Source: Nostoc linckia FACHB-104 (lineage in GTDB: Bacteria > Cyanobacteriota > Cyanobacteriia > Cyanobacteriales > Nostocaceae). From it: 64,000 bases of DNA. Location of the stretch: contig NZ_JACJQJ010000042.1 of the NCBI RefSeq assembly GCF_014696615.1, forward strand, positions 1 to 64,000, written 5' to 3'. How positions within the stretch are numbered: position 1 is the stretch's first letter; every line of letters starts with the position of its first letter. Shown piece after piece: positions 1 through 12,152 of this stretch. The position numbers and the translations under genes are program-made. Under the pieces are notes generated by a model, which searched no databases, was not told the DNA's origin, and saw nothing but the letters and a program-made list of their open reading frames with translations.

Positions 1-52
1 CACCGACTTCTATTACGAATACAAGGCTTTCGGAATCAGATTTAACTAATAC

Positions 53-3000
53 CTATGTACTAGCAATTGGCGATCGCATTGTGCCAGTTGCGTAAGTCCT
101 GTCTAAAAGTGGATTTTGAAAAATACTAATAATACTTGTTAATTCTGCTGTTGTTGGTTGCCAGAGGTAATCATCTATGTTTTTTTGTCCTGCCCTTAAC
201 CAGAGTAGCGCCCAAGCAGCTGTATGAGCAGCAGGATTGCTTCCTTTGAGCATAGTCAGCAGTTTATCTATTATCCCCTTTAAGACAGATTCCGAAACAG
301 ATATTTTTTCTCTAAAAGCGAGTTCCATCACAACTAAAGCCGCACCGATCGCAGTTCGTTCTTGATTCCATGTATTTTTAGAAAGTATCTTCTCAAGCCA
401 TTGCTGGAAGCTACTTTCTTCATTTAGTGCCTGATTCACAGTCGTAACTGCATAAAGACCACCAATGTTGGCTTGATCTGTTATTCTATTTTTTGTGTCT
501 CGCCTGCAAAATTCCTCTAGCATAGAACTGCGTAGCTTCTCTGACCATTGAGATGTACACAGTTCCATAGCAGCAAAATCTACTGTAGTTTGAGGTTCTG
601 AGCTTTCACCATCTTCCTTACCTATTTGCCTAACAAACTTTTGTAAAACCTCCTGTGCCACTTCATCACTAGCATTAGGCTCATCAGCTAAACACAAAGC
701 AGCCATGACTGCACGGGGACGAGCAGTAGTCTGAGGATCTTCTTTTTCAAGCGGTTTGAGGATAGCTCGCAAAACATCGTCTACGTCATCATCATTACAG
801 GATGCTACACAAAGACGTAATGCCTCTCGCCAGTTTTCAGTTACTTCTTCTGTCTCATCTTCAATATTGGCAGCAAGCTGGGCTACATAGTCGGCAAGAG
901 TGAGAGAGCGATTTCGTTTAGGAAAATGACCTTGCACCAGCGCCAATCCTGCTAAGTATTCTTGAAAAGTCAGGTGACGAAACTCAAATACAGGAGTGTC
1001 TCTGCCATTATGTGGAATAATACCCGCTTCCACTAAAATCCCTGTGCGACTTTCTAACAAATTCAGAAATTCTTTAGGTGTGTGCTTTTTGACTTCATGA
1101 AGATTGGGATATTCTTTCCGAAATTGTGTAAATAACTTGATTATTTCATCTTGGCGAAGTTGCTGTACTCCCTCATAACACATGGCATAAGCAATGTACT
1201 CTAATTGCGGTAACGCTTCATCCTCATCTATGGGTTCGTCTACTTCAGAGCGCCAATTTAGTAGTACATCTACTGCTTGTGCATACAATTTGTGCCGACG
1301 AGTCGGTAGTTTACCAACTTTACGCTTCACCAGCGCCATTGTTGTCAGCAGCATAGGATTACCAGTGAGACGCTCAATCCTTTCCGCACTGTGAATGTCT
1401 TTAATTAATTCTATTTTTGCCTTTTCTCGTCGCTCTGGTAATTCCGTAATGTCACACCAGCGACTTGCAAAGTCGTCTTTATCTTCTTTAGTCAGTTCTG
1501 CTACCGTAACGTGTTCAAACTGTCGCCCTATACGGTAACGCATTTCCCGATAGCCAACAATACGGGAAGTAACAATAATCGGAGCTTGTTTGTACGCATC
1601 AGAAATCTTTTCAATCTGTTGGCATAATGTAGCGCGTAAACGTGGATTTGTAATTTCATCTAAGCCATCTATCAGTAATAAGGCCGTACCCTGTTGAAGT
1701 TTTTGTTTTAAAATACTGCGTAAAGCGGTGCATTCAGCCTCGCTCATCTCAGCTTTACGCAAAGTGTAACCCAATATATCGTCTAAAGAACCGCGAAGGC
1801 TGGTTTCATCAAGATCTCGACAACGGATAATAATCGGTAGCCAATCCTCATCTGGAAGTGTAGATACGTCTGGCAAATCCTTCCAGTCTGGATCTTGTTT
1901 GAGCCGCAGCAAATAAGCTGTAGTAATCCAACGCACCATCGTAGTTTTACCTGCGCCTGGATCTCCCAACACAACCAGACGTTTAGCCTTAGCCAGTCTC
2001 TGTCCAATTGAAGCCCGTTCACTTGTTTCTTCTTCGTCTATGTCTTCAATACTCCAGCCTACTCTTTTACGCTGTTTTGCAATGCGATACTTTTCAATTG
2101 CTTCCAATGCCGCTTCATCAACTTCAGTATTAGAAGCAATTTCTACTTGAACGCGGAGTGCCACGTAAAGCCGACGTAGTAAAAGTTTTTGGGTAGCTAT
2201 ATGCCGATCTGACTCTGGCAGGTTAGCTAAGTCAATAATGTCACAAGACTCTAAAGCAAGTTCTCGGTAACGCTGCTCTGCATCATTTCCACCTTTTATA
2301 TAATCTGGAGATGCTTCCAATGGATAATATTTCTTCAGAGCATTAATTAAATCTTGTGTTGCTTTTGTAGGAGCTTGCCAATATTGAGCAATACATTCAT
2401 CAAATGCCAATGTCTCTACATCAGCTTCTTCATCCATTTGTACGCAAAAAACACGCATTCGATAATTACTTCTTGCAGCGTAAACAATCTGGCGCGCCCA
2501 CTTGGTTCCTAATGCTTTAATAGTTCCACAAAGTACTACCGGACTACCACTACTCAAAGCCTTGGAAGCTTCTGCAAGGAAAGATTCTCCCACCATTACC
2601 GTCCCGCGATGGGCAACTTCATAGCCAGCATTGCGAATAGGTTCTGCTAATTTTTCCGCTAACTCGTCTTCTCCCTTAGCATGGGCAATCACAACTTGCT
2701 GATGTAGAGTATCGGCCACTCTAGAAATAGTTTTTTTATTTTCAACATTATTGGCGGTAGCCTTATTTTGAATAATTTTACCTTCCTGCTGATCTTCAAA
2801 TAAACTTGATAGAGCAGGTACATCTCCCCAGTTTTCTTGTTTAGTAATATCAATACTGCTTTTATTTTGCTCTTGTATTGGCTGATTGCTTAAAGATAGT
2901 TCTGATATATTTTTTTGATAACCTGCTTTTTCAAGTAAGCCGGGTACATCTTCCCAATATCTAATTTCTACATTTTGCTGTCCTTCTGAATTTAATAAAT

Positions 3001-3247
3001 CCACGACATATCTGTACACTGTTTTAGATAAAGCATCACTGACTGTACCTTGCCCTACACCACGTTTATCGGCAATTTCTTGAGGACTATTTCTGCATAG
3101 CAACCCTCTTAGATGACACTTTTCTACTGGTGTCAGTATTTTTCTTCCTACCCCATCCTTGACTTTGGCTAAATCTTTATATAAGCGTTCTGTATCCCAG
3201 TCCTTAGATTCTTCTATAAAAAGAGTGTTGTCTTTCTTTGGGGACAT
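53..3247 (-). CDS. HTH / TIR-like / NACHT NTPase (bacterial NLR-type protein)
   Basis: A 1064-residue multidomain STAND ATPase. Residues about 35-85 form a helix-turn-helix (EIADKRGVGQGTVSDAL) like the N-terminal HTH of cyanobacterial vWA-MoxR-associated and NB-ARC proteins. Residues about 183-310 look like a TIR fold (QQVVIAHAKGEDELAEKL, then SPVVLCGT). The NACHT module has Walker A GDPGAGKTT at 428-436, Walker B LLLIDGLDE at 523-531, a sensor-like IIVTSR near 557 and the NACHT-type FRHLTFQEYLAGLAL at 756-770. The remainder is helical and HEAT-like, a plausible sensor. The usual TIR catalytic Glu, four residues after the conserved Trp (W250), is Ile, so NADase activity is doubtful. Bacterial NACHT proteins are known anti-phage sensors; that role here is inferred. 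Divergent from the pentapeptide gene. ATG start. Confidence 0.85.
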   Translation of the reverse strand: MSPKKDNTLFIEESKDWDTERLYKDLAKVKDGVGRKILTPVEKCHLRGLLCRNSPQEIADKRGVGQGTVSDALSKTVYRYVVDLLNSEGQQNVEIRYWEDVPGLLEKAGYQKNISELSLSNQPIQEQNKSSIDITKQENWGDVPALSSLFEDQQEGKIIQNKATANNVENKKTISRVADTLHQQVVIAHAKGEDELAEKLAEPIRNAGYEVAHRGTVMVGESFLAEASKALSSGSPVVLCGTIKALGTKWARQIVYAARSNYRMRVFCVQMDEEADVETLAFDECIAQYWQAPTKATQDLINALKKYYPLEASPDYIKGGNDAEQRYRELALESCDIIDLANLPESDRHIATQKLLLRRLYVALRVQVEIASNTEVDEAALEAIEKYRIAKQRKRVGWSIEDIDEEETSERASIGQRLAKAKRLVVLGDPGAGKTTMVRWITTAYLLRLKQDPDWKDLPDVSTLPDEDWLPIIIRCRDLDETSLRGSLDDILGYTLRKAEMSEAECTALRSILKQKLQQGTALLLIDGLDEITNPRLRATLCQQIEKISDAYKQAPIIVTSRIVGYREMRYRIGRQFEHVTVAELTKEDKDDFASRWCDITELPERREKAKIELIKDIHSAERIERLTGNPMLLTTMALVKRKVGKLPTRRHKLYAQAVDVLLNWRSEVDEPIDEDEALPQLEYIAYAMCYEGVQQLRQDEIIKLFTQFRKEYPNLHEVKKHTPKEFLNLLESRTGILVEAGIIPHNGRDTPVFEFRHLTFQEYLAGLALVQGHFPKRNRSLTLADYVAQLAANIEDETEEVTENWREALRLCVASCNDDDVDDVLRAILKPLEKEDPQTTARPRAVMAALCLADEPNASDEVAQEVLQKFVRQIGKEDGESSEPQTTVDFAAMELCTSQWSEKLRSSMLEEFCRRDTKNRITDQANIGGLYAVTTVNQALNEESSFQQWLEKILSKNTWNQERTAIGAALVVMELAFREKISVSESVLKGIIDKLLTMLKGSNPAAHTAAWALLWLRAGQKNIDDYLWQPTTAELTSIISIFQNPLLDRTYATGTMRSPIAST

Positions 3248-3417
3248 TGCTGTACTAATTAAATTCCTAATCTAAATCCTAATAGTTTTCCTTATGATAC
3301 TTCAACGCCCGTGAAAATACATAAGGGTTTTGATGTGGAGACTAATATTTTTGATTTCCTTATGCTAGAGGCATCTGATGTTTCAAAAACATAGGCAAGC
3401 AAGAACACAGGAGTTAT

Positions 3418-4047
3418 ATGCCTCAAAATACCTTTAGTAATTTATCTCACATGGATTTAAGTGGTTACAATATGAGTAATCGTGATCTGAGCAACTGTAA
3501 TTTAATAGGTGTTCAACTTAATGGCAGCAATTTGAGGAATACGAAGCTGAACGGTGCTAAATTGCAAGATTCTCAACTACGTGGATCTGATTTAAAAGAT
3601 GCCAAATTGTGTGGCGTACAATTATCTGATGCTGACCTGAGCGGTTCTGACTTACGTGGGGCAGATTTAACTGGCGCTGACTTAAGACGTGCTAACTTGA
3701 CAAACACAAAGCTAGACGATGCTAAATTAGACGGTGCCAATGTTCAAGGTGCTGTATTTCAAGCTAGTACCGGACTCACTAAAGATATAAAACAGGCTCT
3801 GAAAAATCGAGGTGCAGATTTTAAGAATACTTCTGTAGTTAAGCTCAATTCTCTGGATATCAAGTGGTGGATACAATATGTACTTGTCCCGCTTGTTGTT
3901 GCTTTAATAGGAGGTGGTGGCATTGTAGTAACTATGATTAATGCCTCAAAGACTGAAGAACCACCCAAACATACACCTACCGTTCAACCTACAAATCAAG
4001 CAACTCCATTACCAAAGTCGATATCTACCATTAAATCTAAGAAGTAA
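3418..4047 (+). CDS. pentapeptide-repeat protein with C-terminal membrane anchor
   Basis: 209 residues. About 20 pentapeptide repeats of the A(D/N)Lxx type run from residue 9 to 116 and should form a right-handed quadrilateral beta helix. They are followed by the motif TGLTKDIKQALKNRGA, which often closes cyanobacterial pentapeptide proteins. A single strong transmembrane segment lies at about 150-174, followed by a Pro/Thr-rich polar tail of 35 residues. The protein is therefore probably an anchored repeat scaffold; its molecular role is unknown. It is divergent from the NACHT gene across 170 bp, so the two may share control. A TATGCT at 3361 could be a -10 element. GGAG in the sequence before ATG is a reasonable ribosome site. 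Confidence 0.85.
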   Translation: MPQNTFSNLSHMDLSGYNMSNRDLSNCNLIGVQLNGSNLRNTKLNGAKLQDSQLRGSDLKDAKLCGVQLSDADLSGSDLRGADLTGADLRRANLTNTKLDDAKLDGANVQGAVFQASTGLTKDIKQALKNRGADFKNTSVVKLNSLDIKWWIQYVLVPLVVALIGGGGIVVTMINASKTEEPPKHTPTVQPTNQATPLPKSISTIKSKK

Positions 4048-4481
4048 GTAGGTAAGCGCAATTATTTGTAAGATGCGATCGCCTCTTCACAAAACATAAA
4101 ACCCTTTAACAGCATGGGTTAAATCACACTAACCTATCTTAAGTTTAATTTAACCCACTTACTTAGCGCTATGATGAGCGATCGCACCCTCACCCCAAAA
4201 AGTGCGATCGCAACTTCCTCACGCTGACAATCAAAAACTACCATAAAGCTAGCATCAGGTATAAGTTGACGTAACCGTTGCAAATGGCCATCTGCATCAG
4301 ACCGAGTGCAAAATCTCGCAACAGTGCTGGCTGAAGACACATAGTTTTAACTCACTCCCTGCTTGTGGTCGAAGTTGGTTTACTAAAGAAGAATTCAGAC
4401 GATCGCCCTCCTTAATTCCCAAGTGCGATCACCATATACTGGGGTATTCTTACCTCAAAACAAAACATAAGATACAGTGAA
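4048..4481. other. gene-free stretch with HIP1-like sites and a possible remnant
   Basis: 434 bases between the pentapeptide and membrane-protein genes. It holds several GCGATCGC-type or near-HIP1 sites and no convincing intact gene. One minus-strand segment looks like a coding remnant and is listed separately. Confidence 0.5.
4134..4340 (-). pseudogene. possible remnant of a SPOR-like C-terminal domain
   Basis: A 68-codon minus-strand frame opening with GTG. Its first part (TVARFCTRSDADGHLQRLRQ, then IPDASFMVVFD) has the alternating pattern of a SPOR-like or similar small C-terminal domain seen at the ends of longer cyanobacterial proteins. The rest degenerates through HIP1 sites. No ribosome site is visible and a stop lies just upstream in frame. 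It is more likely a fragment than a working gene, but a small real protein cannot be excluded. Confidence 0.25.
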
Positions 4482-5042
4482 ATGAAATATATCAAACGTC
4501 ACGTTAAAGGGATAAAACTCTTTGTCGAGGTTGCTTTTTTAATAGCCCTATTTCTGTTTGGACTTTTCCTCGATTATAAATTAGCTGCTTCCTTGTTCTG
4601 GCAGTTTTACTTATTGATGACTGTTTTAGCCTTAATCTTACTCTTGCCAGTATACTTACAATCTCGGCATCAACAACAATTGTGGCTTTTTCTCGGTTTC
4701 AATATCAGTCTATTAGCTCTGCACTTTTTGACTCTCAGTCCTGTAAAATCCTTCACAAAGTTTTATCTTGACATTCAAAATGGTATGACAATTCCGGAGG
4801 TTCAAAGCTTATTTAACCAGCATTTTCCAAAAGGGGGAAAATTTCGTCAACCGGAATGGGAACTACGTTATGGACATAATGGTGTGCTTGCAAATCGTGA
4901 CCCTGCTGAAAAAGGCTTAGCTATACCTGACCAAAATCTACATTACATTCTTGACCTAAGCGATGGTCGTTACAATGCGGAATGGGTGACTGTTTATTTT
5001 AAGGATGGCAAAGTCTTAGGAACTGAGTATTCGCCCGATTGA
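4482..5042 (+). CDS. small three-helix membrane protein of unknown function
   Basis: 186 residues. Three hydrophobic helices lie at about 13-30, 38-58 and 66-85, followed by a soluble C-terminal domain of about 95 residues (YLDIQNGMTIPEVQSLFNQH, later LHYILDLSDGRYNAEWVTVY). The Gln/Pro-rich amphipathic start of this domain and its ending in beta strands resemble small lipoprotein-like SmpA/BamE or DUF folds, but I do not recognise the family. It stands alone with long gaps on both sides. There is no strong ribosome site before the ATG. Confidence 0.7.
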   Translation: MKYIKRHVKGIKLFVEVAFLIALFLFGLFLDYKLAASLFWQFYLLMTVLALILLLPVYLQSRHQQQLWLFLGFNISLLALHFLTLSPVKSFTKFYLDIQNGMTIPEVQSLFNQHFPKGGKFRQPEWELRYGHNGVLANRDPAEKGLAIPDQNLHYILDLSDGRYNAEWVTVYFKDGKVLGTEYSPD

Positions 5043-5840
5043 TTCCGATTTGTCGAACTCATGTTAACAATTCAGGCGATCGCTTGAGTTTCTGATGAGA
5101 AATTTTTGTATTCGCTTGTCAATATTTAGCGCTTTGAATAACCCCCAATGCTTGTAGAAGAGAGGTAAATTCAGGCGATCGCACCCTTCATTTCTCAGTA
5201 CGTAAACACATTTGCTGAGTGTTATTGCAGACTAGTGTATTGTGACCAGGGATGTTATCTAAGGACAAAGATAATAACTTATATATATTGACATTTTTAC
5301 TTTTTTATGAATAACTATTTCTGATACACAAAATATAAAAATTGTCAATTATTTTTTTAAGGGCTATAAAAAGTTAGCAATAGCTCGATTAAAAACTTGG
5401 TAAACACAACTCTTATCTATTGCACTCTACCAAGATACGAACATTTATATATTTACCTTGCAGCTATCCGTTGAGATACTGAGAACAAGCATTCAAATTA
5501 TTGGTTCGCAAAAGAATTGTTTAGCAAAGTTAGTGTGATAAATACTCAACCAACCATTATCTATGATGTTTCCACAGCAAACACAATTCATCTAGACCTA
5601 TAGACAGGGTTTCTAAAAACATTCTCTGAAAATTATAGGCTGGCTATTGAACCCTATCTGTTAACAACATGGTTCTCTAACCTGAATTGGTTTCCACAAA
5701 TTTTCAATTAATTTTTACTAGTCAGGGTCAGCTATTTTTGGGTTGCTACAAGGTCTATTACACAAAGCTATAACAACCGAAAACTCTTGTAAGCAAGCAT
5801 CTCCACTATTAACCTTCACTTTCTTCAAAGAATTAGTTCT
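5043..5840. other. gene-free AT-rich stretch upstream of the PEP-CTERM gene
   Basis: About 800 bases with no supported reading frame. HIP1-like sites occur near 5070 and 5175, and the rest is AT-rich. It presumably carries the promoter and a long leader of the PEP-CTERM gene. No RNA gene is recognised. Confidence 0.5.
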
Positions 5841-6602
5841 ATGGCAACCTTAAATTTCCTGACAAAATTCTCCGTTGCGATTACTGCTACCACAGCGCTA
5901 GGGTTTTTTGCTTCTTCAGCTAATGCCTTATCCCTAACAGGTTCTTCTGGTACCTGGAGTAATCCAGTGGGTGGAAGTAACATCAAATATCAAACTGTAG
6001 GTACAGGTGTACCTCAAGAAAATCAGATACGTTGGGGAAAAGATGTAGGCAATGGTCAGAGTGGATTAGGGTTTAAAGGAGTTGGCTCAGTAGACTTCGA
6101 TGTCAATACGGTATTTCAAATTGGGTCTCTGACACACTATAACAATGCGATCGCTGCTGGAACAGCCGCCTCAAAAGTAGATCTTGGACTCAAGTTAAAC
6201 TTTAATAGCTTACCGATAACATCACAGACCTTTAACTTTAGCTTTAATATTGACGAAACGCTAAACTCTGGCAAATGTGCTTATGGGAGCAACAGTCAGG
6301 GCTGCGCTGATAAAATTACCTTTTCTACCCCAAAGAACTTCAACACCTTTAGTATTGCTGGTGTAGACTATACTTTACAGCTGCTAGGATTTAGAGAAAA
6401 ACCTACTAGCACTACTGTAACTAATTTTATTTCACAAGAAGGTCGTAGTAACTCGGCTTTCCTTTACGCTAAGATTACCGCTGTTCCACCAAAAAGAGTT
6501 CCTGAGTCTAGCTCTGCTTTAGGTGTAGTTGCCTTTGGTGCTTTAGCTGCTAGTTCTATGCTGAATCAAAAACAGCGAGTCAAAGCAACAGCCAAGGTAT
6601 AA
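5841..6602 (+). CDS. THxN-family PEP-CTERM surface protein
   Basis: 253 residues. A Sec signal peptide occupies about 1-29 (hydrophobic core AITATTALGFFASSANA). A beta-rich extracellular domain contains the Thr-His-x-Asn motif (SLTHYNNAI) that names the THxN family (choice-of-anchor K type). A C-terminal sorting signal has VPESSSALG, a hydrophobic stretch, and a basic tail with KQR. In the family the PEP-type tail is processed by an exosortase/archaeosortase-like enzyme at the membrane; none is encoded in this window. A Cys pair near residues 147 and 154 could form a disulfide. Likely exported or surface-associated; its binding partner is unknown. Confidence 0.85.
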   Translation: MATLNFLTKFSVAITATTALGFFASSANALSLTGSSGTWSNPVGGSNIKYQTVGTGVPQENQIRWGKDVGNGQSGLGFKGVGSVDFDVNTVFQIGSLTHYNNAIAAGTAASKVDLGLKLNFNSLPITSQTFNFSFNIDETLNSGKCAYGSNSQGCADKITFSTPKNFNTFSIAGVDYTLQLLGFREKPTSTTVTNFISQEGRSNSAFLYAKITAVPPKRVPESSSALGVVAFGALAASSMLNQKQRVKATAKV

Positions 6603-6798
6603 GTTCATCAATTTCAGTTATTGCCAACCTGTTATTTTTACAGCTGTTTCTTACAAAGTAAGAGGCAGCAATTTTTTATTTGAAGCTTCTTAGCTAAGTT
6701 AGCTAAAAACTGGGAATAATATAATAGCGATTTTTATGCAGTTAATCTGCGAATAGATTAGTATAAATTATTCTAATTGCCCTTCACATTAAGTCACT

Positions 6799-8250
6799 AT
6801 GAAAGATATTCAGGGAGGATTAAAATTTGTTGAACAACTAATTTATGCCAAGACTGGAAAATCTCTAACGGATATTCAAAAAGCAGTCCTGCAAGAATCT
6901 TGGGATGGGCAAAGAAAGACTTATAACCAGATTGCCGAAGAATTCCAATATTCTGCAAGTTATATTAAACAAACTGTAGCCCCGCAATTATGGAAACTGC
7001 TATCGGAAGTCCTAGGGGAAAAAGTCAATAAAACTAATATTCATGCTGTAATTGAAAGGCGACGGGCAAATCAAACTTCTACTAGAAGTCAAAACTTAAT
7101 TGAAAGATTGAGAAAGCGATTAGAGCCTTATTATACTGGGCAGTTACAGTATGTTACTTTAGAAACAATTGAAAATACTTCATTCAAAAACCATACTAAA
7201 CCACTGTCTGCAGCTACACAATTAATTATAGAAAGTTATCAAAAGACTGTAGAGTTAGAACTACCAAAAGGCTACGTACCTTTAAATTCTGCTTTTTACA
7301 TTGAGCGAATTCCTAATGAACGTAGATGTTATGAGGAAATTATCAATGCAGGATCTCTAATTCAGATTAAAGCACCAAGACAAATGGGTAAAACCTCTGT
7401 CATGGTTAGAGTTTTGGCTCACGCAGTTACCCTAGGTTATCAAACTGTCAGCTTGAATTTTTTACAAGCAGATAAGAAAATTTTGACTGACTTAAATAAA
7501 TTATTGCGCTGGGTGTGTGCCAATATTACCCATAAACTCAAGCTCAAAAATAAGCTAGATGATTACTGGGATGAAGATTTAGGTAGTAAAGCAAACTGCA
7601 CGCTTTATTTACAAGAATACCTGCTCCCGCAAATAGAAAATCCTCTAGTATTGGCTTTAGATGAAGTCAACGAGATTTTTGAGTATCCTGAAATTGCTCA
7701 AGATTTTTTATGTCTTTTACGTTCTTGGCATGAGGACGCTAAAGATAGTGAAATATGGCAGAAACTTCGACTAATAGTAAGTAACTCTACACAATTTTAT
7801 ATTCCATTAAGTATTGCTCCATTTCAGGTGGGTTTTTCAGTGCAGCTGCGCTCATTTAACTGGGAGCAAGTACAAGATTTAGCACAGCGTCATCAACTTA
7901 ATATCTCAATAGGCAATTTAGCTGAACTTATGTGGCTGGTAGCTGGTCATCCTTATCTGCTACGTGTAGCTTTTTACCATCTAGCACACCAAGATTTAAC
8001 TTGGGAACAACTGATACAAACTGCAGCTTCCAATACAGGAATTTATAGCGAATATCTTCACCAACACTTGTGGTATTTACAACAGCATCCAGAACTAGCA
8101 GCAGCTTTTGAGCAAGTACTGCAGGCAAAAGCACCAATAGAATTAGAGCCAGTACAGGCTTTTAAGTTACACAGTATGGGTTTGGTAAATATGCTAAATA
8201 ATCAGGTGATGATTAGTTGCGATTTATATCAGCGTTATTTTGGTAGATAA
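6799..8250 (+). CDS. HTH-AAA-like ATPase (AAA_35 type)
   Basis: 483 residues. An N-terminal HTH at about 25-75 (TYNQIAEEFQYSASYIKQTV) is of the vWA-MoxR-associated kind, comparable to the N-terminus of the NACHT protein at the left end. A basic linker follows. The ATPase has a P-loop variant APRQMGKTS at 192-200 and Walker B LVLALDEVNEIF at 283-294, typical of the cyanobacterial AAA-like domain often paired with effector or signalling modules. GHPYLLRVAFYHLA near 383 matches the lid region of that family. No C-terminal effector or WD40 domain follows, so this is the short form. Function is unknown; signalling or conflict roles are inferred from architecture. An inverted repeat overlaps its stop codon. 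Confidence 0.8.
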   Translation: MKDIQGGLKFVEQLIYAKTGKSLTDIQKAVLQESWDGQRKTYNQIAEEFQYSASYIKQTVAPQLWKLLSEVLGEKVNKTNIHAVIERRRANQTSTRSQNLIERLRKRLEPYYTGQLQYVTLETIENTSFKNHTKPLSAATQLIIESYQKTVELELPKGYVPLNSAFYIERIPNERRCYEEIINAGSLIQIKAPRQMGKTSVMVRVLAHAVTLGYQTVSLNFLQADKKILTDLNKLLRWVCANITHKLKLKNKLDDYWDEDLGSKANCTLYLQEYLLPQIENPLVLALDEVNEIFEYPEIAQDFLCLLRSWHEDAKDSEIWQKLRLIVSNSTQFYIPLSIAPFQVGFSVQLRSFNWEQVQDLAQRHQLNISIGNLAELMWLVAGHPYLLRVAFYHLAHQDLTWEQLIQTAASNTGIYSEYLHQHLWYLQQHPELAAAFEQVLQAKAPIELEPVQAFKLHSMGLVNMLNNQVMISCDLYQRYFGR

Positions 8251-8295
8251 TTATTTTATTATCAATTTTAATTCGGTAATAAAATAATTATACTG
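8249..8295 (+). terminator. inverted repeat at the end of the AAA-like gene
   Basis: A perfect 13-bp inverted repeat (8249-8261 with 8277-8289) made only of A and T, overlapping the stop codon. It could act as a weak terminator or an mRNA end stabiliser. The lack of G/C makes a strong intrinsic terminator unlikely. Confidence 0.4.
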
Positions 8296-8469
8296 CACAA
8301 ATCTCTAACTTGATAAAGTTTTATTTTAAATAATGTGGCTAATAGTAGTGGATTATCGCATTAATTATGAGAAATTGATAAGTTATTATTTATGACTTTA
8401 CCTCTATATTTATAAGAGCTAAGTTACTAAATCTGAACTCATTAAAATTAATGCGATAAAGTACACTTG

Positions 8470-9888
8470 TCAACCTGAGACAGGTAAAAATTCTAAAGGC
8501 TCAAAGGGAGTAATATATATCAACTCTGCACCCTCTGGTTTACTTTCTGTTGAGGGAGTCAATTTAAGCCACTCATGAAAGCTAATTCCTAATTGGGATA
8601 TTGCTTGTACTTCAGTTTGATAGGCTTCAAATCGCCGATTAGTTTCAATCATTGATTCCATAACTTCCAATACTTGGGGAATGCGCTTGTACGCCTCTTT
8701 TTCAAACCTTCCTGTAAATGGAGTGGGATTTGCTCCAAATAGGCTCCATTGAACTTCACTACGATCCACAATTGCTGAGGGGAGCGAAGATAACCATTCG
8801 TCAGGGTTTCGTACCAGACTCACCAGGTTTTCACGCTGAATTTCAAACACAGAATTTTCATCTAAATTTGGATCAATCCATTGGTAAATTCTGGTAAACC
8901 TCCGCAAATCTATTTGACCTTTGAACTGAGGATGTAAGTATACTGCTGGATTAGAAGTGAGCATAACTTCAACATATTTCTGAATGCGAGAACGGAGGAC
9001 TCTTGCTCCTTCTTGAAAACGGCGGAGTGCTGTATCATGTTCTTCTAATTCTAAATAACAACGTGCCTCTGCTAAATAAGCTAAAGACAAAGTTAGTAGA
9101 TATTTATCAGCTATTTTACTTTTTTGTTCAATCTCAATATCAGCATACTCAGTATAAATATGCTCTGCTTCTAGAAAGCGATTAATAGCTTGCAATGCAC
9201 TACTTCTACGATTTTCAGCTTTAGCCATTGTAAAAGCATTAGCTGCTAATTCTATTGCAGCCCGAAAATTAGCATAAAAACTCAGGTCAATTTTCCGGTT
9301 TATTTTATTTAAACTTTCTTGTGCTTGTTGTAAGCTCTGCTCTAATTCATTAAGTCTTTGCGCTATTACAGCCAAGCCCATCACTGAAACGCCCAAATTC
9401 AGTACACTAGTAGCAGTAGTTAACTGTAAAACTCCTTGGCTTAATTGTATACTTTGCCCAATTTCTCCTAACTTATTTTCAATTCCATTCAAACGCCCAT
9501 TAACGTCAGAAAATCCTTTTCCGGAGATAGCAGCATTAGCAACTGCTCCAACAAGATTTACCCCAGACATAGCAACATTACCTAAGCCTAGTTGTTCAAC
9601 TCCACCTAAACGTTGGTTAACATCTGCAAACCCTTTAGCATTAACAGCAGTATTCGCTCCAGAAGCAACAAGATTGGCTCCAGAAACAATAAGGTTGAGT
9701 AAATTGTTAGAGGAACCACCTACGGTTGTTATTGTTGCATTTTGTCCAGTTATATCTCGTAACCAAGTAATAACTTTCTTACTTCCCACATCTCGGATTA
9801 CACCCCCAACCCGTTCTAAACTTCCATCCGCTAGACCTTTGACAACCCAATTAGCAAGCATAAAAGTTACTGTAAGTGGTAAGCCCAT
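8470..9888 (-). CDS. helical repeat protein of unknown function with hydrophobic N-terminal half
   Basis: 472 residues, no family recognised. The N-terminal third holds imperfect repeats: GKGF/AKGF-x-DVNxRLxG(V/I)E around residues 85-98 and 124-137, and a weaker third copy ending RLNELEQ at 178-184. These repeats are rich in small hydrophobic residues (Gly, Ala, Val, Asn). A hydrophobic stretch (SVLNLGVSVMGLAVIA) and a coiled coil (about 178-200) follow. The C-terminal half is TPR-like helical (YLLTLSLAYLAEARCYLELE, EHDTALRRFQEGARVL). The arrangement recalls helical membrane-acting or pore-forming proteins, but that is speculation. It is convergent with the AAA-like gene. Confidence 0.75.
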   Translation of the reverse strand: MGLPLTVTFMLANWVVKGLADGSLERVGGVIRDVGSKKVITWLRDITGQNATITTVGGSSNNLLNLIVSGANLVASGANTAVNAKGFADVNQRLGGVEQLGLGNVAMSGVNLVGAVANAAISGKGFSDVNGRLNGIENKLGEIGQSIQLSQGVLQLTTATSVLNLGVSVMGLAVIAQRLNELEQSLQQAQESLNKINRKIDLSFYANFRAAIELAANAFTMAKAENRRSSALQAINRFLEAEHIYTEYADIEIEQKSKIADKYLLTLSLAYLAEARCYLELEEHDTALRRFQEGARVLRSRIQKYVEVMLTSNPAVYLHPQFKGQIDLRRFTRIYQWIDPNLDENSVFEIQRENLVSLVRNPDEWLSSLPSAIVDRSEVQWSLFGANPTPFTGRFEKEAYKRIPQVLEVMESMIETNRRFEAYQTEVQAISQLGISFHEWLKLTPSTESKPEGAELIYITPFEPLEFLPVSG

Positions 9889-10014
9889 AATCCTCTTCTA
9901 TTTGGTAGACTGGCGAAAGCTTGGTATATGGCAATAAGCAGTTTGGTCTTTATGCAGCAAATACCTATGCTGTAAGTAAGTATTCCCAATTAAAGTGAGA
10001 GTATAACTAATAAA

Positions 10015-10050
10015 ATTAATGCCCAAGCTCATAAGTAGCTTGGGCATTGG
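10015..10050 (-). terminator. hairpin terminator after the STAS-sugar transferase gene
   Basis: A perfect 9-bp stem GCCCAAGCT / AGCTTGGGC (10021-10029 with 10037-10045) with a 7-base loop. On the minus strand it is followed by an A/T-rich run with several T. It lies about 60 bases past the end of the STAS-transferase gene. Confidence 0.6.
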
Positions 10051-10107
10051 CAATAATTAATTTTGGAAGTTATAAATTACCAACAGACTAAAAATCAAGG
10101 TAATTGG

Positions 10108-11145
10108 CTAAACTGCACCACTATTTCTATTAAATAGAATGGCTAAAGTTTTGAAAATTAGCTTGAAATCATACAGTAAACTCCAATTTTTTTGATACTG
10201 CAAATCCAAGCGGATTACATCTTCAAAACTACGTACTTTAGACCGTCCGTTTACTTGCCATTCGCCAGTCATACCTGGTTTTACATCTAATCGTTGCCAC
10301 TCAGGTACTTCATAGCGTTCTACTTCATCAGGGGTTGGAGGTCTAGTACCAACTAAACTCATGTCTCCTTTAAGAACATTCCAGAATTGCGGTAATTCAT
10401 CTAGACTAGTGCGCCGTAAAAAGCGTCCTACCCGCGTTACTCTAGGATCGCTCTCATTCTTAAAGAAAGCTCCTTGCACTTGGTTTTGGACTTGGGATTT
10501 TTTGGCTTCTGCATCCACACACATGGAGCGGAATTTCCAAATTCCAAAACGTTTACCCATCCAACCACAGCGAGTTTGTCTAAAGAAAAGGGGGCCGGGA
10601 TCGTCAATTTGAATAGCAATTGTAATGGGAATTAATAAGACTCCTGTAATTACCAAGCCTACCAGTGCCCCAACAATGTCAATCAACCGCTTCATCCAAG
10701 ATGCCACAGAAGGATGAGTAGTAGGTAACGACTCAACCTTGCGAGCAGAAAACTTGTGGTTTTCCACAAGGTGGTTTTGTCCATGCGGTGATAAACTGCT
10801 GAGAGATTCAATGGAAAAAACTTGATCTAAACCTGTGAGGTTAAGAACTGCCATTACCTGAGGTGTCACATTTCGCAATATAATGGCGATTCTCTTTTCC
10901 TGAGCAGTTTTAAAATTACTGACTAGCGCACCTAAACCACTGCTATCCATAAAAGTAGTTTGGTGAAAGTCAATAATGATTTGTTTTATATGAGAGTGTT
11001 CCAGGGTTAACTCTTGGCAGATTTGCTTAAAGCCTACGGCCTCAAGCACACTCAATCGCTTGGGTACCTGGACTACAGCCATGTCATTTAGGGAAGTCAC
11101 CGGGAAATCGACCGCTTTGGGTTGGCTATTTATGAAGCTTTGCAC
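10108..11145 (-). CDS. STAS domain fused to a bacterial sugar transferase
   Basis: 345 residues with two domains. Residues about 18-118 form a STAS (anti-anti-sigma) domain with the switch motif MDSSGLGAL; Ser68/Ser69 is the expected phosphorylation position. Residues about 145-345 are a WbaP/EpsE-type polyprenyl-phosphate sugar-1-phosphate transferase: a membrane segment (LIDIVGALVGLVITGVLL), FGIWKFRSM, LRRTSLDELPQFWNVLKGDM, SLVGTRPP and KPGMTGEWQVNGRS. Such enzymes start exopolysaccharide repeat units on undecaprenyl phosphate. The fusion suggests that initiation is controlled by a serine-phosphorylation partner switch (inference). It is a single gene, divergent from queE. Confidence 0.9.
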   Translation of the reverse strand: MQSFINSQPKAVDFPVTSLNDMAVVQVPKRLSVLEAVGFKQICQELTLEHSHIKQIIIDFHQTTFMDSSGLGALVSNFKTAQEKRIAIILRNVTPQVMAVLNLTGLDQVFSIESLSSLSPHGQNHLVENHKFSARKVESLPTTHPSVASWMKRLIDIVGALVGLVITGVLLIPITIAIQIDDPGPLFFRQTRCGWMGKRFGIWKFRSMCVDAEAKKSQVQNQVQGAFFKNESDPRVTRVGRFLRRTSLDELPQFWNVLKGDMSLVGTRPPTPDEVERYEVPEWQRLDVKPGMTGEWQVNGRSKVRSFEDVIRLDLQYQKNWSLLYDFKLIFKTLAILFNRNSGAV

Positions 11146-11354
11146 TGTCGTTGCCGTCTAAATGTAAGCTATCAATCATTTATTTTGACGTAGATATTCT
11201 CTAACCTCATCTTGATTAAGTAGGAATCAGGACTAATCGTAAGTTATTTGGGTTGAGATTAGAGATTGCTAGCGACGATTCACAATAGAACAAGAACCAA
11301 AAAACTTACTTGCTCTCGTGACGACGCGGCGCGATCGCTTTTTTTAATCATCCC

Positions 11355-12152
11355 ATGACTGCTAAAACTACGGTTAAACCTACTGCACGCCTGATTGAGG
11401 TCTTTTCTGCTATTCAAGGGGAAGGACTGAATGTCGGGACACGTCAGATTTTTATTCGCTTTGCTTTGTGTGACTTACGCTGTCACTTTTGCGATAGCGC
11501 CCATACTTGGAATGCACCTTCTACTTGTAGGATAGAGCGAACCCCTGGATTACGAGACTTTGAAGAACACTCAAACCCTATCCCACTGCCCATTTTATTA
11601 GAATGGGTGGAACGGCAAAATCAACCGTCTATACACGATAGCATTAGCTTAACGGGTGGCGAACCCTTACTTCATGCCCCATTTTTAGAGCTATTTCTGC
11701 CACAAGTGCGATCGCTTACCAATCTGCCTATATATTTAGAAACTGGGGGTCATCGTCCAGAACAGTTGGCACTGATTTTGCCCTACCTCGACTCCGTAGG
11801 CATGGATTTAAAATTACCTAGTGTCAGCGGTGAAAGCTATTGGCAAGAACACGCACAATGTCTGAAATTATCTTATGATTCACATTTAAACGTTTTTGTC
11901 AAGATAATTATTTCCCAACAGACAGACCCAACTGATTTAGAACGTTCAGCTTTGTTAGTAGCAGATGTTAGTCCTGAGATCCCAGTGTTCTTACAACCTG
12001 TGACACCTTTGCCAGTGTCCGAAAAATCTACAGCAAAAACTATACTTGCCCCTACTCCCGACCAGGTTTTGCAATGGCAAGCATTAATGAAGCGCTGGTT
12101 AAAGCACGTTCGTGTCGTGCCTCAAACCCATAAAATGTTGAATCAGCTATAA
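11355..12152 (+). CDS. queE: 7-carboxy-7-deazaguanine synthase
   Basis: 265 residues, radical SAM enzyme converting 6-carboxytetrahydropterin to 7-carboxy-7-deazaguanine on the route to queuosine. The cluster ligands are C39, C43 and C46 (CDLRCHFCDSAHTW, Cx3CxxC). The substrate region EVFSAIQGEG is typical of QueE. The glycine-rich SAM motif TGGEPLL is present, followed by YLETGGHRP. The insertion between the cluster and TGGEPLL is longer than in the shortest QueE proteins. No other queuosine gene is adjacent. HIP1 (GCGATCGC) lies just before the start. Confidence 0.9.
   Translation: MTAKTTVKPTARLIEVFSAIQGEGLNVGTRQIFIRFALCDLRCHFCDSAHTWNAPSTCRIERTPGLRDFEEHSNPIPLPILLEWVERQNQPSIHDSISLTGGEPLLHAPFLELFLPQVRSLTNLPIYLETGGHRPEQLALILPYLDSVGMDLKLPSVSGESYWQEHAQCLKLSYDSHLNVFVKIIISQQTDPTDLERSALLVADVSPEIPVFLQPVTPLPVSEKSTAKTILAPTPDQVLQWQALMKRWLKHVRVVPQTHKMLNQL

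What the first reader, a model, noticed from the sequence alone, without database searches (positions are those of the whole stretch)
53..3247. Bacterial NLR-type protein combining HTH, TIR-like and NACHT modules
Walker A (GDPGAGKTT) and Walker B (LLLIDGLDE) of a NACHT are preceded by a TIR-like fold and an HTH of the vWA-MoxR-associated kind, and followed by helical repeats. The TIR catalytic Glu expected four residues after Trp250 is Ile. The TIR-like part may therefore be a scaffold or may use another chemistry.
Basis: partly seen in the sequence, partly recalled or inferred. Interest (0 to 1): 0.7.

Follow-up and report, generated by a model that had tools for sequence, protein, structure and literature searches.

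The report
Chimeric bacterial NLR with dead TIR
A cyanobacterial immune-receptor-like gene carries a TIR-like domain that has lost its catalytic residue; its relatives keep a separate, catalytically equipped TIR gene right beside it, which suggests that the dead domain is a docking or control part, while the copy in this genome has swapped that partner for a helix-turn-helix module and is cut in two by a transposon.

Summary
The gene lies on the minus strand (3247→53) and encodes an HTH-like module, a Glu-less TIR-like domain (Trp250, Ile254) and a NACHT.

(1) Of 217 family genomes searched, 12 carry this TIR-like domain. All 11 relatives encode a free ~127-aa TIR directly upstream, overlapping by ATGA. 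The free TIR keeps W-xxx-E (11 of 11); the TIR-like domain has W-xxx-I (12 of 12). The pair also occurs in front of an NB-ARC instead of a NACHT. It looks like a travelling unit: an active TIR plus a pseudo-TIR on a sensor NTPase, resembling plant RPS4/RRS1.

(2) The window gene is a chimera. Its HTH 5′ end and the divergent pentapeptide gene match an HTH–P-loop–WD40 locus; its body matches the TIR/pseudo-TIR–NACHT–HEAT operon. No partner TIR was found in this genome.

(3) An insertion sequence with a 5-bp target duplication splits the gene at window 101; the HEAT repeats lie on another contig.

Predicted structure supports a TIR fold; catalysis by this domain alone is unlikely. The adaptor or regulator role is inferred. 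My searches found no description of such a pair.

The parts
53..3247 (-). Open frame of 1064 aa: HTH module, transition, TIR-like domain, NACHT, helical region; the last ~15 residues are encoded by an insertion sequence
1..101 (.). End of an insertion sequence that splits the gene; at least 10 other places in the genome hold 81 or more identical bp of it, 9 of them at the very end of a contig
   Evidence: homology to relative L043 stops at window 102
102..106 (.). 5-bp target duplication (TTAGA in gene sense); the same 5 bp follow the other insertion end on contig C50
2797..3247 (-). HTH module (residues 1-150); lies within a stretch of 83% DNA identity to an HTH-P-loop-WD40 locus of another species (L101)
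2987..3130 (-). Tri-helical HTH-like core, residues 40-87 (helices 40-50, 55-62, 66-87)
   Evidence: weak Foldseek matches to NarL/LuxR-type HTH
2707..2796 (-). Chimera junction zone between the HTH-locus homology and the TIR-operon homology
2312..2701 (-). TIR-like (pseudo-TIR) domain, residues 183-312
2486..2500 (-). Trp250 to Ile254, the site where the partner TIR has Trp to Glu
1457..1978 (-). NACHT domain, residues 424-597
1940..1966 (-). Walker A GDPGAGKTT, residues 428-436
1655..1681 (-). Walker B LLLIDGLDE, residues 523-531
3418..4047 (+). Divergent pentapeptide-repeat gene with a hydrophobic C-terminal segment (read from sequence); 78% and 76% identical proteins sit beside the HTH genes of L101 and L102

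Best explanation
Family level. A two-gene immune-type switch. Gene 1 is a free TIR with the catalytic Trp-xxx-Glu. Gene 2 is a STAND receptor whose N-terminal domain is a TIR without the Glu. C-terminal repeats sense a trigger, the NACHT (or NB-ARC) oligomerises, the clustered pseudo-TIRs dock the free TIRs and order them into an active assembly, and the free TIRs then consume NAD+ or make a cyclic ADP-ribose signal. Shown: gene order, overlap, residue conservation, predicted fold, exchange of the NTPase body. Inferred: binding, activation, NADase activity, trigger, role in phage defence. Window copy. It is a chimera: the partner-TIR gene was replaced by the 5' end of an HTH-P-loop gene, so the HTH sits where the effector input would be, and the pseudo-TIR has lost its cognate partner. 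An insertion sequence has since cut off the HEAT repeats, so the copy is most likely inactive in this strain.
For: 12 of 217 family genomes hold the TIR-like domain. 11 of 11 relatives have the partner TIR directly upstream with ATGA overlap; one of these, L052, is cut by the contig start but keeps the second half with WVNREW. Partner W-xxx-E 11 of 11; TIR-like W-xxx-I 12 of 12. TIR-like and partner are remote homologues: hhalign probability 95.2, E 2.5e-8; on an unrooted tree each lies on one side of a branch with 100/100 support. The partner is TIR_2 at E 3.5e-24 (L044) and matches solved bacterial TIRs, among them AbTIR at 3.8e-13. The pair precedes NACHT+HEAT (L044, L048) or NB-ARC (L050, L052). 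dN/dS of the TIR-like domain, window against L042-L045, is 0.10-0.19. Chimera: DNA homology to L101 covers window 2797-4035; homology to TIR operons L042-L045 begins at 2706. No partner TIR in the genome: TIR_2 rings at only three places, the window and two large fused proteins, and the L019 partner itself gives no match at E 1e-3 (a search without a positive control of its own). IS split. Precedent: PMC7282519 (passages read) says that the minority of plant TIRs without the Glu appear to be from sensor TNLs that act through a genomically paired TNL, and that the RRS1 TIR lacks the Glu.
Against: No interaction, NADase or phage data exist here. Conserved gene order may reflect shared ancestry in one bacterial family: only 11 relatives, several of them near-copies. 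Pairwise dN/dS mixes both branches and cannot show that constraint continued after the partner was lost; among the near-copies L043-L045 it is 0.28-0.55, on few changes. The window copy itself has no partner, so the model explains its relatives better than it explains the window. The structural match is not exclusive: other Rossmann-like folds score nearly as well.
Confidence: 0.6

Rival explanations
1. The pseudo-TIR is a lock, not a recruiter: it holds the free TIR inactive through a heterodimer, and sensing by the NACHT/HEAT part releases it, as RRS1 is thought to restrain RPS4.
For: Same genomic data as the best explanation; the solved TIR with the highest TMq among the 50 rows shown is the Glu-less RRS1 TIR; [quoted passage not shown] Loss of the partner gene would be harmless for a lock, which fits the window copy.
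Against: ATPase-driven oligomerisation normally clusters N-terminal domains (recalled); the fusion to two different STAND bodies fits a recruiter at least as well. Nothing here separates the two.
Confidence: 0.22
2. The TIR-like domain is itself an enzyme with a different catalytic residue or a different substrate.
For: The domain is strongly conserved (mean column identity 80%; dN/dS 0.10-0.19 against L042-L045) and keeps invariant polar residues such as Glu33, His36 and Ser45 in the alignment numbering.
Against: No acid in the usual helix under either alignment; each of the 11 relatives carries a separate TIR with the Glu, so a second enzyme is not needed. Conservation fits binding equally well.
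Confidence: 0.06
3. In the window gene the HTH is the working output: the chimera is a signal-responsive regulator that binds DNA, and the pseudo-TIR is a relic or spacer.
Against: Foldseek support is weak (best E 0.29); no binding site was sought; the gene is now split by a transposon.
Confidence: 0.35
4. The chimera is an assembly error.
For: The genome is a draft of 181 contigs and the contig ends in a transposon.
Against: The junction lies about 2.7 kb inside a contig of at least 64 kb, in a continuous reading frame, with a ~90-bp zone between the two homologies; the insertion end is 2.6 kb away from it.
Confidence: 0.04

Closest known systems
Plant paired TIR-NLRs (RPS4/RRS1)
   Same: A TIR receptor without the catalytic Glu is encoded beside an active TIR partner (PMC7282519, passages); among the 50 Foldseek rows shown RRS1 TIR has the highest TMq.
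   Different: The active partner here is a bare ~127-aa TIR, not a second NLR; the genes overlap head-to-tail in one operon; no homology of the sensor parts is claimed; probably convergent.
Bacterial NACHT (bNACHT/NLR-related) antiphage proteins
   Same: NACHT with Walker A and B, N-terminal module, C-terminal repeats; NCBIfam EruA and DS8 match weakly around the NACHT.
   Different: Effector supplied by a second gene; pseudo-TIR in the effector position; far below the EruA and DS8 cutoffs (40.1 of 1000 and 21.5 of 790 bits).
Effector-associated-domain (EAD) systems
   Same: Same principle of recruiting an effector through like domains on effector and NTPase (PMC8195603, passages).
   Different: The shared domain is a TIR homologue, one copy of which is the presumed enzyme, not a small non-catalytic EAD.
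SPARTA (TIR-APAZ with short Ago)
   Same: Lowest Foldseek E-value of the TIR-like model (8ifk); active and inactive TIR-APAZ/Ago units in one assembly (PMC10474274, passages).
   Different: There the TIRs of the assembly are described as structurally identical per wing and differ in conformation; here they are different genes, one without the Glu; no Argonaute seen.
DUF4062 / Swarozyc TIR-like NADases
   Same: TIR-like fold.
   Different: Swarozyc needs its active-site Glu (PMC13174449, Results part 1 of 2); DUF4062 is not among the Pfam matches listed for the window protein.

Membership tests
TIR-domain NADase | TIR fold | tested here: met
   AF2 pLDDT 78.8, pTM 0.77; TIR-containing chains TMq 0.61-0.71, other Rossmann-like folds 0.48-0.66; homologous to the partner TIR.
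TIR-domain NADase | Catalytic Glu in helix C | tested here: not met
   Ile in 12 of 12; no Glu in either alignment
TIR-domain NADase | NAD+ cleavage | not testable with these tools
   needs an assay
Partner gene as TIR-domain NADase | TIR family match and Trp-xxx-Glu | tested here: met
   TIR_2 3.5e-24 for L044, the one partner scanned; W-xxx-E in 11 of 11 partners
NACHT STAND (NLR-like) protein | NACHT with Walker A and B | tested here: met
NACHT STAND (NLR-like) protein | C-terminal sensor repeats | tested here: met
   HEAT repeats in L044 and L048 and matching repeats on C50 for this genome; in the window frame itself they are cut off
NACHT STAND (NLR-like) protein | Protection against phage | not testable with these tools
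   no phage data
vWA-MoxR (VMAP) ternary system | MoxR, vWA and VMAP genes at the locus | tested here: inconclusive
   Pfam of the pentapeptide gene and of 6 further genes within window 4482-12152 shows none of them; window 12153-64000 and the DNA beyond the insertion were not scanned
vWA-MoxR (VMAP) ternary system | VMAP-type HTH at the N-terminus | tested here: inconclusive
DUF4062 / Swarozyc | DUF4062 match and conserved Glu | tested here: not met
   no DUF4062 in the Pfam list (max E 10, HMMER filters drop most matches above 0.1); no Glu
SEFIR | SEFIR profile match | tested here: not met
   absent from the same Pfam list

The most novel reading that the evidence does not exclude
A bacterial counterpart of plant paired NLRs: a sensor NTPase whose catalytically dead TIR forms a hetero-TIR assembly, perhaps a composite active site, with a bare TIR enzyme encoded in the same operon. 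The TIR/pseudo-TIR pair moves as one module between NACHT and NB-ARC receptors.
Probability: 0.5. Interest if true: 0.75.

Novelty: new variant of a known kind. Interest (0 to 1): 0.58.

Why it matters
If the pair works as proposed, it gives a small bacterial system in which active and dead TIRs are separate genes. The open question of what a Glu-less TIR contributes to an NLR complex (raised for RRS1 in PMC7282519, passage) could then be tested in a laboratory bacterium. The window copy is a clean natural example of NLR-module shuffling: junction within about 90 bp, donor-like loci identified on both sides, later interrupted by a transposon.

Tried and rejected
Solo NADase with a shifted Glu: rejected, no acid in the helix under either alignment. 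Wider spread of the TIR-like domain: 1 of 291 order genomes (own only; single-sequence query, even sample). With the profile, 3 of 388 class genomes (even sample): own, plus L057 and L058, which by eye are ordinary free TIRs with an acid, not relatives of the pair. No confirmed match in viral contigs and none in plasmids. Partner TIR elsewhere in this genome: none found. Other TIR_2 proteins in this genome are large fused proteins. DUF4062 and SEFIR: not in the Pfam list. PADLOC shows only partial matches.

Literature searches that showed me no description of such a pair: all in an open-licence library; I saw listings and abstract starts, and passages or sections of nine papers, no whole text. 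The Pfam scan of NB-ARC bodies covered L050 and L052, 2 of the 4 loci of that clade; L049 and L051 were not scanned. The pdb_via library was not available.

Full report
What is there. The finding's coordinates hold one long frame on the minus strand, 3247 to 53, 1064 aa. Pfam gives NACHT at 424-597 (1.5e-10) and a sub-threshold TIR_2 at 185-274 (24.1 bits, cutoff 28). Walker A is at 428-436, Walker B at 523-531, Trp250 is followed by Ile254. The predicted structure of residues 178-312, made from an alignment of 12 sequences without templates, has mean pLDDT 78.8 and pTM 0.77, with alternating strands and helices as in a TIR. Foldseek places a SPARTA chain first by E-value (1.3e-5), and the RRS1 TIR has the highest TMq of the 50 rows shown (0.71). 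TIR-containing chains range from TMq 0.61 to 0.71 and other Rossmann-like folds from 0.48 to 0.66. So 'TIR-like' rests on sequence and fold together, not on fold alone.

The relatives. A search of 217 family genomes with the TIR-like domain found it in 12, the own genome included; none of the 7 other genomes of the genus has it. In 11 of 11 the gene just upstream is a free TIR that overlaps the receptor gene by ATGA; ten are complete (127 or 135 aa), and in one (L052) the contig begins inside that gene and its second half is present. The partners have W-xxx-E in 11 of 11; the TIR-like domains have W-xxx-I in 12 of 12. The 25 residues after the CGT motif of the TIR-like domain hold no acid in 11 of 12; L049 has a Glu at the 24th, in the loop before the next strand. 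Under the hhalign alignment, which pairs different Trp residues, the Glu faces Lys249. The loss is thus shared by the whole set and not an alignment slip.

Why a pair. Partner and TIR-like domain are remote homologues (hhalign probability 95.2, E 2.5e-8) that lie on two sides of a deep branch (100/100), so this is not a recent duplication. The pair stands in front of NACHT plus HEAT repeats in L044 and L048, and in front of NB-ARC in L050 and L052; the remaining two of that clade, L049 and L051, were not scanned. The exchange of the NTPase body with the pair kept together is the best sign that the two TIRs are one functional unit. The TIR-like domain is under purifying constraint (pairwise dN/dS 0.10-0.19 between the window and L042-L045, 0.10-0.13 with L046 and L047), the C-terminal part less so (0.32-0.48 for the window's pairs). 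Among the near-copies L043-L045 the TIR-like values are 0.28-0.55 on few changes, and all pairwise values mix both branches.

The window copy is a chimera. DNA homology to the TIR operons L042-L045 begins at window 2706, at about the fourth codon of their receptor genes. Upstream, window 2797-4035 is 83% identical to L101 of another species, where the HTH module leads a gene with a P-loop (by eye) and WD40 repeats (Pfam; only the best 25 families were shown), beside a divergent pentapeptide gene; L102, from a genome of the same genus, has the same arrangement. That pentapeptide neighbour was found at 2 of the 32 other HTH loci examined, most with only about 1.5 kb of flank. The junction lies in the ~90 bp between. 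No partner TIR was found in the genome: the TIR_2 profile rings at three places only, the window and two large fused proteins with AAA_35-like ends (labels by eye), and the L019 partner gives no match at E 1e-3 (which had no positive control). The HTH module itself is widespread: 129 of 208 family genomes. Its model is all-helical, and the Foldseek list is mostly HTH DNA-binding domains, but with no E below 0.29. Four congeners were examined for the flank: their DNA is collinear with the window from about 4400-5170 rightwards. In three (G303, G304, G308) several kilobases beyond that point give no match to the receptor or pentapeptide genes; in the fourth (G305) the contig begins there, so it says nothing.

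The window copy is split. Bases 1-101 recur at no fewer than 10 other places (81 or more identical bp), 9 at the very end of a contig. Homology to the relative L043 stops at 102. Repeats 78% identical to those of L043 over the best stretch lie on contig C50, directly next to a second set of the insertion's terminal bases, and the same 5 bp (TTAGA) flank both ends. The simplest reading is one gene split by one insertion. The residues after 1049 are encoded by the insertion. Whether a truncated protein is made is unknown; most likely it cannot sense.

Mechanism. Shown: operon order and overlap, residue pattern, predicted fold, exchange of bodies, chimera, split. Inferred: HEAT repeats sense a trigger, the NTPase oligomerises, pseudo-TIRs dock free TIRs, and the free TIRs act on NAD+. 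[quoted passage not shown] A lock in place of a recruiter fits almost as well and cannot be excluded here.

Novelty. All parts are of known kinds. What I did not find in print (open-licence papers only, listings and passages) is a bacterial operon of a bare active TIR and a Glu-less TIR on a STAND receptor. The EAD principle (PMC8195603, passages) is the closest bacterial concept. I rate it a new variant of a known kind.

Noticed in passing
window 8260-10010: A block with a 472-aa gene (8470-9888, minus; no Pfam match over cutoff) is absent at this place from the 4 congeners examined, whose flanks are directly adjacent in two (L127, L128); two other congeners (G302, G307) hold a copy about 80% identical.
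   Followed up: partly
window 3418-4047: Pentapeptide-repeat gene with a hydrophobic C-terminal stretch, divergent from the HTH gene, shared with L101 and L102; may be a functional partner of that HTH type.
   Followed up: partly
window 6799-8250: AAA_35 protein with a Sigma70_r4-like N-terminal HTH (sub-threshold, 21.8 of 24.1 bits), conserved in 4 congeners.
   Followed up: no
L044 residues 1213-1262; L048 residues 1333-1383: The C-terminus of these two relatives matches wHTH-HSP90_Na-assoc (PF24410) over its cutoff.
   Followed up: no
L106, L107: The same HTH module also occurs as a stand-alone ~161-aa protein beside a divergent small hydrophobic 114-aa protein and a ~390-aa protein with a hydrophobic segment.
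   Followed up: no
L043 and the window, residues 701-1046: The receptor C-terminal half exists in two types: window and L043 share one (dN 0.13), L042, L044 and L045 another (dN 0.34-0.37 to the window), although the front halves are closely similar, as expected for sensor exchange.
   Followed up: partly
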